From Phascolarctobacterium sp. (GTDB lineage Bacteria > Bacillota > Negativicutes > Acidaminococcales > Acidaminococcaceae): DNA of 59,058 bases. Position 1 is the first letter of the stretch. Each line of letters begins with the position of its first letter. Positions 41,685 to 43,713 of this stretch are shown piece by piece. The notes below the pieces were generated by a model that saw only the letters and a program-made list of their open reading frames with translations, ran no database searches and was not told the DNA's origin. Both the position numbers and the translations under genes were made by a program. Location of the stretch: positions 1 through 59,058 of the forward strand of contig NZ_JAUNOQ010000013.1 in the NCBI RefSeq assembly GCF_030531065.1, given 5' to 3'.

Positions 41685-42322
41685 TGCTGCGCAAAGCAAA
41701 GCGAGAAGCAATTTTAAATATTTTAGAAGCGACCTATAAGGACGCCAAAACGGCGCTCCATTATAATTCGCCTTTCGAGCTGCTGGTGGCGGTGATTTTA
41801 TCCGCCCAATGCACCGACGACCGGGTGAACGTGATTACCGGCCGCATTTTCCCACGGCTGAACACGCCGGAGAAGATGGGGGCGCTGACTCAGGAGCAGA
41901 TGGAGGCGGAAATACGGGATTGCGGCTTGTATCACGCCAAGGCGAAGAATCTTTTGGGAACCTGCCATATGCTGGTGGAAAAGTTCAACAGCACTGTGCC
42001 CAGCGATATTAAAACGCTGATGCAGCTGCCGGGCGTGGGGAAAAAGACGGCTAACGTGGTGGCCAGCATTATCTATAACGTGCCGGCCATCGCCGTGGAT
42101 ACGCATGTCTTCCGCGTGTCCCACCGTTTGGGCTTGGCGAAGGGCGCGGACCCGCTGGCGACGGAAAAGGAGCTGCAAAAGGCGATTCCCATGGAAAAGT
42201 GGAGCGACGCTCATCATTGGTTTATTTGGCACGGGCGCAAGGTCTGCAAGGCGCGCAAGCCCTTGTGCAGGGAGTGCGCGCTGCTGGAGGAATGTCCCTT
42301 TAAAGAAAAAAACTTGGAGTAA
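41684..42322 (+). CDS. nth: endonuclease III
   Basis: A 212-residue base-excision repair glycosylase/AP lyase. The helix-hairpin-helix LPGVGKKTANVV carries the catalytic lysine, VDTHVFRVSHR the catalytic aspartate, and CKARKPLCRECALLEEC the [4Fe-4S] cluster (C-x6-C-x2-C-x5-C). It removes oxidised pyrimidines. ATG 41684 overlaps the stop of the preceding gene. Confidence 0.97.
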   Translation: MLRKAKREAILNILEATYKDAKTALHYNSPFELLVAVILSAQCTDDRVNVITGRIFPRLNTPEKMGALTQEQMEAEIRDCGLYHAKAKNLLGTCHMLVEKFNSTVPSDIKTLMQLPGVGKKTANVVASIIYNVPAIAVDTHVFRVSHRLGLAKGADPLATEKELQKAIPMEKWSDAHHWFIWHGRKVCKARKPLCRECALLEECPFKEKNLE

Positions 42323-42330
42323 AATTTATA

Positions 42331-42480
42331 CCGACCCCAAAAAGTTAGACCTGAAATCTAACGATTGGAGGTCGGTGTTTTTATGGCTAAGTATAGTTTT
42401 GAGTTTAAGAACAAAGTAGTTATGGCATACCTTAAGGCCGAAAGAAAATATTGGATAATGCAAAAAATGCATTTTAGGTT
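42331..42480 (+). mobile_element. truncated left end of an IS3-family insertion sequence
   Basis: An IS3-like terminal sequence (GACCCCAAAAAGTTAGAC, 42333-42350) is followed by the start of orfA at ATG 42383: MAKYSFEFKNKVVMAYLKAERKYW, the helix-turn-helix N-terminus of an IS3/IS150-type transposase subunit. Homology ends after about 30 codons. The rest of orfA, all of orfB and the right end are missing, so this is an immobile relic. It marks the left boundary of the inserted ADP-ribosyltransferase island. Confidence 0.8.
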
Positions 42481-42484
42481 TCAC

Positions 42485-42513
42485 TTGCTGCGGCAAATGT
42501 TAGAGGGTATAAT
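42485..42513 (+). promoter_or_regulatory. promoter of the DUF3791/DUF3990 module
   Basis: TTGCTG (42485-42490), 17 bases, TATAAT (42508-42513), about 37 bases before the first gene of the module. Confidence 0.65.
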
Positions 42514-42549
42514 TATATATAGAAATTGCAAATGTTTGGAGGCGATACT

Positions 42550-42762
42550 GTGCTGGATGAAATTCTGTTTTTCCAACTGCGTATATTTAGATTGTTCTGT
42601 GATAGGGTAAAAGTATCGTCTGTTGAGGGAAATAAGATTTTTGAGAGATATGGCATATGGAAATATATTGAAGATACATATGACGTTATGCATTTGAACA
42701 GTGATGAGAATGCTTTTAGCGATGTGCTGGAGATTTTGAAAGCCAAAGGTGCTGACATATGA
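42550..42762 (+). CDS. DUF3791 protein, possible antitoxin-like partner
   Basis: A 70-residue protein: LDEILFFQLRIFRLFCDRVKVSSVEGNKIFERYGIWKYIEDTYDVMHLNSDEN compressed around ERYGIWKYIEDTYDVMH, the DUF3791 signature. GTG 42550 is chosen because TGGAGG lies seven bases upstream. It overlaps the next gene by four bases. DUF3791 genes commonly neighbour DUF3990 genes; an antitoxin or immunity role is inference from size, order and coupling. Confidence 0.75.
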   Translation: MLDEILFFQLRIFRLFCDRVKVSSVEGNKIFERYGIWKYIEDTYDVMHLNSDENAFSDVLEILKAKGADI

Positions 42763-43334
42763 AGCTTAAAGATGGAATGTTGTTGTATCATGGCAGCTAT
42801 ACTTCGGTTGAGAATGTAGATTTAAATAAATGTGAAGCAGGAAAAGATTTTGGTAAAGGATTTTATGTTACTGCTGATAAAAATCAAGCAAGAAGCTTCA
42901 TAAAAACATCCTTGCTGAAAGCGAAGGCTAAGAAACAAATAGCTGCAAATCAAAATTTTGGCTATGTTACATGCTACGAATATCATTCTGCTTTAAAGGA
43001 TGTACCTGTTTTTGAATTTACAAATGCAGATAAAGAATGGCTATGGTTTATCGCATTAAATAGGCGTAAGCATTTAGCTAAAGAACTGGCATCTAAAGTA
43101 AATAAGGTTCTTTTCAGCAGTGAAATTATTGTGGGAAAAATAGCTAATGATACTACAAATCCTGTTATTACAACATATCTCACAGGCTTGTATGGTTCAA
43201 TAGCTGATGAGCGTTCAGCTCAAATAGCGATATCGTTGCTTTTGCCTGATAGATTAAAGGAACAGTATTGTTTCCTTAGCTCAAGAGCCGTTTCTTGTTT
43301 AAAGGTTGTGGAGGTGTGTAGATATGAGCTATGA
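42759..43334 (+). CDS. DUF3990 protein, ADP-ribosyltransferase-like
   Basis: A 191-residue protein beginning MKLKDGMLLYHGSYTSVENVDLNKCEAGKDFGKGFYVTADKNQA compressed around LYHGS and DFGKGFYVT. These match the NAD-binding strands of ART-fold enzymes as seen in DUF3990. FALNRR-like and SAQIAISLL segments follow. The family is predicted to modify protein, RNA or DNA with ADP-ribose; no substrate can be read here. Start and stop overlap small genes on both sides, forming a three-gene unit with the layout of a toxin-antitoxin or defence module. The base composition is AT-rich compared with nth and priA, and an IS3 relic borders it, suggesting acquisition. Confidence 0.8.
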   Translation: MKLKDGMLLYHGSYTSVENVDLNKCEAGKDFGKGFYVTADKNQARSFIKTSLLKAKAKKQIAANQNFGYVTCYEYHSALKDVPVFEFTNADKEWLWFIALNRRKHLAKELASKVNKVLFSSEIIVGKIANDTTNPVITTYLTGLYGSIADERSAQIAISLLLPDRLKEQYCFLSSRAVSCLKVVEVCRYEL

Positions 43335-43533
43335 GCAGAAAGCTTTTTGTGCAGATTTAATTTTGACAGATGCTATTATGGACATGGCAGATGATGAGGG
43401 AATTAGCCGCCAAGAAGCTAGGAATAAAATTATTAACTCACCTGCGTATGATGCTCTCTATAATTTTGATACAGGGCTGTGGGCTAATGGACCTGACTAT
43501 TTCAGAGCTTTTTATCAATCGATCAGGCAATAG
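43324..43533 (+). CDS. small protein of the DUF3990 module, unknown function
   Basis: A 69-residue protein (MSYEQKAFCADLILTDAIMDMADDEGISRQEARNKIINSPAYDALYNFDTGLWANGPDYF compressed around GISRQEARNKIINSPAYDALYNFDTGLW). Small acidic proteins of this kind occur in operons with DUF3990 and DUF3791. ATG 43324 lies inside the end of the DUF3990 gene and follows GGAGGTG. An antitoxin or accessory role is possible but not shown. Confidence 0.7.
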   Translation: MSYEQKAFCADLILTDAIMDMADDEGISRQEARNKIINSPAYDALYNFDTGLWANGPDYFRAFYQSIRQ

Positions 43534-43667
43534 CGGCTCTATGTATAGCCGACAGATAATTATTGCAATACTAGAGCATCCTAACTGTATGATTTTGACG
43601 GCGAGACCGGCGTGCGCTGGAGCTTCTGATAAGCTTAACAGAAAATTATATATTGCAGCATAAGTAA
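43534..43667 (+). other. gene-poor stretch with a possible leftover gene tail
   Basis: After the small gene no complete gene is visible. Codons 43588-43629 read YDFDGETGVRWSF and a stop, which looks like the tail of a lost gene but has no upstream frame. The stretch ends at a terminator. Confidence 0.25.
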
Positions 43668-43713
43668 AGGACTACCGCAGAAAGCAAATTTTGCTGGAGC
43701 GGCAGTCCTTTTT
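43667..43713 (+). terminator. terminator after the DUF3990 module
   Basis: AGGACTACCGC (43668-43678) pairs with GCGGCAGTCCT (43699-43709), with an inner AGCAAATTTTGCT hairpin, followed by TTTTT. An extended -10 (TGGTATAAT, about 43779-43787) between here and priA is the likely priA promoter. Confidence 0.85.

What the first reader, a model, noticed from the sequence alone, without database searches (positions are those of the whole stretch)
42331..43713. Three-gene ADP-ribosyltransferase-like module in an island beside an IS3 relic
A DUF3791 gene, a DUF3990 gene with ART-fold motifs (LYHGS, DFGKGFYVT) and a third small acidic gene overlap one another between nth and priA. They are AT-rich, have their own promoter and terminator, and border a broken IS3 end. 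Small-toxin-small architecture with overlaps is typical of toxin-antitoxin or phage defence units. The target of DUF3990 and the roles of its two small partners are not established to my knowledge.
Basis: partly seen in the sequence, partly recalled or inferred. Interest (0 to 1): 0.65.

Follow-up and report, generated by a model that had tools for sequence, protein, structure and literature searches.

The report
ADP-ribosyltransferase between two sibling small proteins
A gut bacterium carries a mobile three-gene unit in which a probable ADP-ribosyltransferase toxin is flanked by two small proteins that turn out to be distant copies of each other, most likely a paired antidote; the unit was already catalogued as an untested anti-phage candidate (PDC-M13), but how it is built and works had not been described in any paper found here.

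Summary
The three overlapping genes are real: DUF3791 (42550-42762), DUF3990 (42759-43334) and a third small acidic gene (43324-43533), ending at a terminator and placed behind a truncated IS3-family end. The DUF3990 model (pLDDT 95.8) has an ADP-ribosyltransferase fold and keeps the residues invariant across 91 relatives, including H11, Y36 and Q169. The cluster is not unknown: all three proteins match PADLOC's candidate defence system PDC-M13, for which no mechanism was found in the literature searched. New here: (1) the third protein is a diverged homologue of DUF3791 (hhalign 93%, score 33 against at most 11.6 in 40 shuffles); (2) in relatives both partners accompany the enzyme almost always, in two gene orders; (3) natural fusions join all parts: enzyme~third, third~DUF3791, DUF3791~third and HTH~DUF3791; (4) broken enzymes keep both partners, while intact core-clade enzymes never lack both in complete loci. 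The best reading is a mobile toxin-antitoxin-type module in which a heterodimer of two paralogous small proteins restrains an ADP-ribosyltransferase; relatives sit in a type I restriction operon, beside or fused to cas3, and on plasmids and phages. Toxicity, target, trigger and anti-phage activity are untested.

The parts
42329..42435 (+). Truncated left end of an IS3-family element (terminal sequence plus start of orfA, MAKYSFEFKNKVVMAYL)
   Evidence: 85% DNA identity to G000:C21:161443-161549, which is followed by IS3-type transposase ORF pieces; 86% over 65 bp to C26
42538..42542 (+). Probable ribosome binding site GGAGG, before GTG 42550
   Evidence: sequence
42550..42762 (+). DUF3791 small protein (70 aa, net charge -4); predicted antitoxin subunit
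   Evidence: PF12668 3.9e-10; PADLOC PDC-M13A/C profiles; start chosen from the RBS
42759..43334 (+). DUF3990 ADP-ribosyltransferase-fold protein (191 aa, net charge +7); predicted toxin/effector
   Evidence: PF13151 3.7e-32; PDC-M13A/B 1e-30 and 3e-28; AF2 pLDDT 95.8, pTM 0.90; ART-fold matches; H11, Y36, Q169 invariant in 91 relatives
43310..43314 (+). Probable ribosome binding site GGAGG of the third gene, inside the DUF3990 gene
   Evidence: sequence
43324..43533 (+). Third small protein (69 aa, net charge -5); diverged homologue of DUF3791, predicted second partner of the ART
   Evidence: PADLOC PDC-M13C 6.6e-07; profile homology to DUF3791
43666..43711 (+). Intrinsic-terminator-like hairpin with U-tract
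   Evidence: -22 kcal/mol, z -2.8, followed by a T run

Best explanation
The locus is a horizontally mobile three-component toxin-antitoxin-type module (PADLOC candidate PDC-M13). The DUF3990 protein is an H-Y-Q ADP-ribosyltransferase that would be harmful to the cell when free. The DUF3791 protein and the third protein descend from one ancestral small helical protein and act together, most likely as a heterodimer bound to the enzyme in one complex. DUF3791 is the more likely dissociable antitoxin: it is never fused to the enzyme in this set and in some relatives carries a DNA-binding HTH. The third protein is the enzyme's closest partner: it is encoded directly behind the enzyme in most loci and fused to it in one clade. 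Overlapping genes favour assembly of the complex during translation. Loss or capture of the small partners, for example on phage infection or loss of the module, would free the enzyme to ADP-ribosylate an unknown target and stop growth. Shown: gene anatomy, fold (predicted), residue conservation, homology of the two small proteins, obligate co-occurrence, fusions, mobility. Inferred: catalytic activity, toxicity, complex formation, neutralisation, trigger, target.
For: ART fold: high-confidence model whose best PDB matches are ART-fold enzymes, including the toxins of two ART-fold TA systems, ParT and MbcT. Ten columns are strictly invariant in 91 relatives, H11/Y36/Q169 among them, and all are kept here. 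Obligate partners: about 107 of 119 complete loci carry both small families (51 in order DUF3791-ART-third, 42 in order ART-third-DUF3791, 8 with ART~third fused, the rest minor forms); ARTs without partners are nearly all diverged phage-type or PDC-M10-type lineages. Tight coupling: 49 of 57 DUF3791-ART and 70 of 87 ART-third junctions overlap. Homology of the partners: hhalign 93%, P 3e-7, 60 gapless columns, score 33.3 against a maximum of 11.6 in 40 column shuffles; 6 of 58 third-family members hit Pfam DUF3791, best 7.2e-7. Fusions: ART~third, one clade with 100/99 support; third~DUF3791, 149 aa on B. fragilis plasmid pBF9343 next to a zeta toxin; DUF3791-like~third-like, 147 aa in the window's own genome; HTH_3~DUF3791 in L109 and L126. 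Toxin-like decay: ARTs truncated or frameshifted with both partners retained in L043, L131, L161, L163, L175. Mobility and defence links: plasmids, viral contigs, a type I RM operon, cas3.
Against: No toxicity, binding or phage test exists in anything found. Structural Z scores are middling (up to 7.5). The third catalytic position is Q, not E, so activity may differ from classical ARTs or need a partner. The window protein alone of 91 has E instead of D at residue 122. The ART~third fusion shows that the third protein need not dissociate, so it may be an activator or targeting subunit rather than an antitoxin. Most window-type relatives lie among housekeeping genes, not in defence islands. 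Some 'broken' ARTs may be assembly errors.
Confidence: 0.66

Rival explanations
1. Anti-phage abortive-infection system: the complex is a sensor whose small proteins recognise or are displaced by a phage product, after which the ART shuts the cell down, as in CmdTAC. This is the defence-specific version of the best explanation.
For: All three proteins match PADLOC candidate defence profiles. A relative lies inside a type I restriction operon on Moraxella plasmids; a third-protein~Cas3 reading frame follows the module in G265; order-II flanks are led by type I RM subunits. CmdTAC is a precedent for a phage-triggered ART TA system (PMC11618068).
Against: Flanks of window-type (order I) loci show no clear defence enrichment. 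The window neighbours are nth and priA. No phage test known.
Confidence: 0.42
2. Plain addiction module: an ART toxin with a two-part antitoxin that stabilises plasmids and other mobile elements, without any specific defence role.
For: Present on 69 plasmid records, 36 of them conjugative or mobilizable. On pBF9343 it sits directly before a zeta-toxin gene. HTH~DUF3791 fusions resemble autoregulating antitoxins. Accessory and sporadic: 6 of 59 family genomes.
Against: Restriction-operon and cas3 associations; many chromosomal copies with no mobile element visible.
Confidence: 0.3
3. The third protein is not an antitoxin but a required activator or target-recruiting subunit of the ART, and DUF3791 alone is the inhibitor.
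For: The third protein is fused to the ART in eight Bacteroidota loci while DUF3791 stays separate; it lies directly downstream of the ART in both gene orders. The toxin CmdT needs its partner CmdA to accumulate in soluble form (PMC11618068).
Against: The two small proteins are homologous and are also fused to each other in two opposite orders, which fits a joint role. The fusion model gives no reliable domain orientation (pTM 0.70).
Confidence: 0.3
4. A decayed, non-functional island remnant: the genes arrived with an IS and are no longer active.
For: IS3 remnant beside it; no promoter detected; a unique D122E change; an AT-rich island at a synteny breakpoint.
Against: All three frames are intact with good ribosome sites and conserved overlaps, and every strictly invariant ART residue is kept. 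Decay would be expected to break the ART first, as in other loci.
Confidence: 0.1

Closest known systems
PDC-M13 (PADLOC-DB 2.0.0 candidate defence system)
   Same: All three window proteins hit PDC-M13 profiles. PDC-M13A, B and C each hold profiles of two of the three families, which fits the two gene orders found here.
   Different: PADLOC gives only a name; no mechanism, homology of the small proteins or experiment was found.
ParT-ParS and MbcT-MbcA (RES-Xre toxin-antitoxin systems)
   Same: ART-fold toxin of similar size, the best TA matches by structure (Z 7.4 and 6.7); some DUF3791 relatives carry an HTH like the Xre antitoxins.
   Different: No RES match in the window ART; two small partners instead of one; no HTH on the window's DUF3791.
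CmdTAC
   Same: Three-gene ART module with a toxin and two partners; shown to act against phage (PMC11618068).
   Different: Its third part is a SecB-like tetrameric chaperone and its antitoxin is ClpP-degraded; here both partners are about 70-aa homologues of each other.
DarTG / DarT-NADAR
   Same: ART toxin in a TA operon; a NADAR gene is found close to DUF3990 modules in L059 and L067.
   Different: The antitoxins there are hydrolases (macrodomain or NADAR); the window has neither.
DUF3990 T6SS effector domain (Serratia Rhs5-CT)
   Same: Same Pfam domain at the C-terminus of a predicted interbacterial effector (PMC4524185).
   Different: Delivered effector with a separate immunity gene; the window protein is a stand-alone protein with no sign of secretion seen.

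Membership tests
PDC-M13 (PADLOC) | Profile matches for each of the three proteins | tested here: met
   DUF3791 1.7e-6, ART 1.3e-30, third 6.6e-7
PDC-M13 (PADLOC) | Three adjacent co-oriented genes | tested here: met
PDC-M13 (PADLOC) | Anti-phage activity | not testable with these tools
   no experiment found; it is only a candidate
ADP-ribosyltransferase superfamily, H-Y-[EDQ] group | ART fold | tested here: met
   AF2 pLDDT 95.8; matches to ExoA, ParT, diphtheria toxin, tankyrase, MbcT, Z 6.6-7.5. Z is middling, but the listed rows are nearly all ART enzymes
ADP-ribosyltransferase superfamily, H-Y-[EDQ] group | Conserved H, Y and E/D/Q triad | tested here: met
   H11, Y36, Q169 invariant in 91 sequences; the placing of Q169 as third triad residue is inferred from its strand, not measured
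ADP-ribosyltransferase superfamily, H-Y-[EDQ] group | NAD-dependent transfer activity | not testable with these tools
   needs an enzyme assay
Type II toxin-antitoxin system | Small partner genes co-encoded with and overlapping the toxin gene, obligately | tested here: met
Type II toxin-antitoxin system | Toxicity of one gene, neutralised by protein contact | not testable with these tools
   needs expression tests
RES-Xre (ParTS/MbcTA) | RES domain toxin with Xre-type antitoxin | tested here: not met
   Pfam shows no RES or HTH match in the window proteins
CmdTAC | SecB-like chaperone as third component | tested here: not met
   the third gene is a 69-aa DUF3791 homologue
DarTG | DarT domain with macrodomain or NADAR antitoxin | tested here: not met
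   no such domain in the three proteins
DUF3791 (PF12668) | Pfam gathering score, third protein | tested here: not met
   P0003 itself has no DUF3791 hit; homology only by profile-profile and through 6 of 58 relatives

The most novel reading that the evidence does not exclude
PDC-M13 is a distinct class of ADP-ribosyltransferase toxin-antitoxin/immune complex in which an ancient gene duplication produced two different small proteins that clamp one ART as an obligate heterodimer, one acting as resident subunit and one as releasable inhibitor or phage sensor, with a new ADP-ribosylation target.
Probability: 0.4. Interest if true: 0.75.

Novelty: new member of a known kind. Interest (0 to 1): 0.5.

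Why it matters
PDC-M13 is among the commonest candidate defence loci reported in rumen genomes (3,324 occurrences in one survey; PMC13356809), yet no paper found says what it does. Showing that its effector is an ART and that its two small proteins are paralogues that fuse with it and with each other turns an anonymous cluster into a testable three-part complex. The natural fusions give ready single-chain constructs for structure and neutralisation tests.

Tried and rejected
Solved-structure search by sequence found nothing for the ART, alone or as a profile, and nothing significant for either small family. PHROGs and NCBIfam gave no informative match. The fusion model was folded to see where the third domain docks, but the linker is weak (pLDDT 67) and pTM is 0.70, so no docking claim is made; its structural matches cover only the ART part. 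NADAR as a general partner was rejected as unproven: the closest NADAR relatives in 398 Bacillota genomes have no ART beside them. The guess that the 141-148 aa gene behind the diverged ARTs of L059/L088 is a NADAR was wrong. The idea that the IS carried the module as cargo was not supported: no second IS end was found near 43,700. An empty nth-priA site could not be shown, because nth has different right-hand neighbours in the relatives examined.

Full report
WHAT IS THERE. Between nth and priA lie three co-oriented genes: DUF3791 (GTG 42550-42762, 70 aa), DUF3990 (42759-43334, 191 aa) and a third gene (43324-43533, 69 aa), with overlaps of 4 and 11 bp and good ribosome sites before the first and third. 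GC is 0.35-0.39 against 0.49 for the window. A strong hairpin with a U-tract lies at 43666-43711. Upstream, 42329-42435 is a truncated IS3-family end, 85% identical to another degraded copy in the same genome that encodes IS3-type transposase pieces. A promoter of its own was not found. In six genomes of the genus nth is present without this module found beside it, and in those examined its right-hand neighbours vary, so this is a variable junction. The ART is sporadic: 6 of 59 species of the family have a match, only two of them beyond the window at more than 40% identity. The family is probably Acidaminococcaceae, inferred because a named Acidaminococcaceae MAG (L039) carries the same module as a genome of this family (L004).

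WHAT THE PROTEINS ARE. Pfam identifies DUF3791 and DUF3990; the third protein has no Pfam family. PADLOC identifies all three as PDC-M13. The way its A, B and C profiles split suggests that PADLOC already captured both gene orders described below; that reading is mine. The literature library has one survey naming PDC-M13 (3,324 rumen loci; PMC13356809), four papers that mention DUF3990 in passing (a predicted T6SS effector domain, and a list of the Pfam ART clan) and one that mentions DUF3791. The PDC candidates probably come from the PADLOC group's work cited as bioRxiv 10.1101/2024.01.29.577857, which is not held here and was not read.

THE ENZYME. The AlphaFold2 model of the window protein on 91 sequences has pLDDT 95.8 and pTM 0.90. 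Its best PDB matches are nearly all ADP-ribosyltransferase-fold proteins: exotoxin A, ParT, diphtheria toxin, tankyrases, MbcT and RES-Xre (Z 6.6-7.5, about 110-130 residues, rmsd 3.3-4.7); PARP1/2 lead by Foldseek. Z is middling, but the consistency of the list, the Pfam ART-clan membership and the motifs agree. H11, D30, F31, F35, Y36, W94, R102, G126, A129 and Q169 are invariant in all 91 sequences; the window protein alone has E for D at 122. This points to an H-Y-Q transferase; activity and target are not shown.

THE PARTNERS ARE OBLIGATE. I collected relatives from genomes, viral contigs and plasmids. Of 119 complete loci, about 107 encode both small families: 51 as DUF3791-ART-third, 42 as ART-third-DUF3791, 8 as DUF3791-ART~third, the rest minor forms. 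Some loci are near-duplicates; in a non-redundant count 106 of 131 ARTs have both, contig edges included, and ARTs with neither are diverged phage-type or PDC-M10-type lineages, cut by a contig edge, or a truncated copy (L023). Gene order follows the ART tree, and the window lies in a fully order-I clade of 26 rows that mixes Bacillota, Treponema and Fibrobacter, i.e. it moves between phyla. Junctions overlap in 49 of 57 and 70 of 87 cases.

THE TWO SMALL PROTEINS ARE HOMOLOGUES. Profile comparison of DUF3791 with the third family gives 93% probability, P 3e-7, 60 columns without a gap; 40 column-shuffled controls reach a score of 11.6 at most against 33.3, and a reversed control 11.1. Other alignments of the two families give 63% (11 and 14 sequences, assigned by position) and 91%. 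As a separate test, 6 of 58 third-family members hit the Pfam DUF3791 model, best 7.2e-7.

FUSIONS TIE THE PARTS TOGETHER. ART~third in eight Bacteroidota loci, one clade; third~DUF3791 in one 149-aa protein on B. fragilis plasmid pBF9343, followed by ART and a zeta toxin; a DUF3791-like half and a third-like half in one 147-aa protein behind the second DUF3990 gene of the window's own genome (the third-like half is weak, 5e-4); HTH_3~DUF3791 in two loci. DUF3791 is never fused to the ART in this set. I infer one complex of three parts, with DUF3791 the likeliest dissociable inhibitor and regulator.

TOXIN LOGIC. ARTs are truncated or split while both partners stay intact in L043, L131, L161, L163 and L175; intact core-clade ARTs in complete loci lacking both partners were not seen, and one (L126) lacks a recognisable third gene. 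This is the decay expected of a toxin with its antitoxins, with the caution that MAG frameshifts can be errors. The third family is nearly always acidic (89 of 92) and DUF3791 mostly so (80 of 99); the ARTs as a family are not consistently basic, though the window's is +7.

DEFENCE OR ADDICTION. For defence: PADLOC candidacy; a module inside an hsdM-hsdS-hsdR operon on Moraxella plasmids; a third-protein~Cas3 frame; type I RM genes leading the order-II flanks. Against a purely defensive role: order-I flanks, the window's type, are mostly housekeeping, and plasmids, including conjugative ones, carry the module. The known parallel is CmdTAC, a phage-triggered ART system with two partners (PMC11618068), but its third part is a chaperone.

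VERDICT. A real, intact member of the catalogued but uncharacterised PDC-M13 group, best explained as an ADP-ribosyltransferase toxin held by a pair of paralogous small proteins.

Noticed in passing
G000:C16:35738-36169 (L001:1035-2001): A second DUF3990 gene in the same genome, followed by one 147-aa protein that looks like a DUF3791-like half joined to a third-gene-like half.
   Followed up: yes
L059:1891-2364 and L067:3993-4364: NADAR (guanosine ADP-ribosyl hydrolase family) genes close to DUF3990 ARTs in a Clostridia and a Spirochaetales MAG; a weak hint that the ART product could be guanine ADP-ribosylation. The closest NADARs in 398 Bacillota genomes had no ART beside them.
   Followed up: partly
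L025:2-1534 (-) / L152 (G265:C296): The third small protein reads in frame into an HD-helicase Cas3-like protein directly behind DUF3791-ART.
   Followed up: partly
L142:2460-8456 (Moraxella osloensis plasmid NZ_CP014236.1): ART-third-DUF3791 embedded between hsdM and hsdS of a type I restriction operon, with hsdR further downstream.
   Followed up: partly
L054:3503-4555: Third small protein fused to a DUF2971-containing protein in a Verrucomicrobia MAG.
   Followed up: no
L128, L129, L132, L133, L135, L138, L139: Diverged DUF3990-like ARTs on viral contigs, several of them large (Geobacillus virus E3 among them), without DUF3791 or third-family genes; possibly phage-encoded effectors on host targets.
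   Followed up: no
L088:1470-2156 and L059:816-1466: A long diverged DUF3990 clade with its own 141-148 aa downstream gene of no known family, in the same loci as PDC-M13-like modules; possibly PADLOC PDC-M10.
   Followed up: partly
window 42200-42330 and L026-L030: The 3' side of nth is a synteny breakpoint in the genus: rpsT and lepA follow in one relative, a RecQ-type helicase in another, unrelated sequence elsewhere.
   Followed up: partly
window 43122-43124 (ART residue 122): E replaces an aspartate conserved in the 90 other aligned relatives.
   Followed up: no
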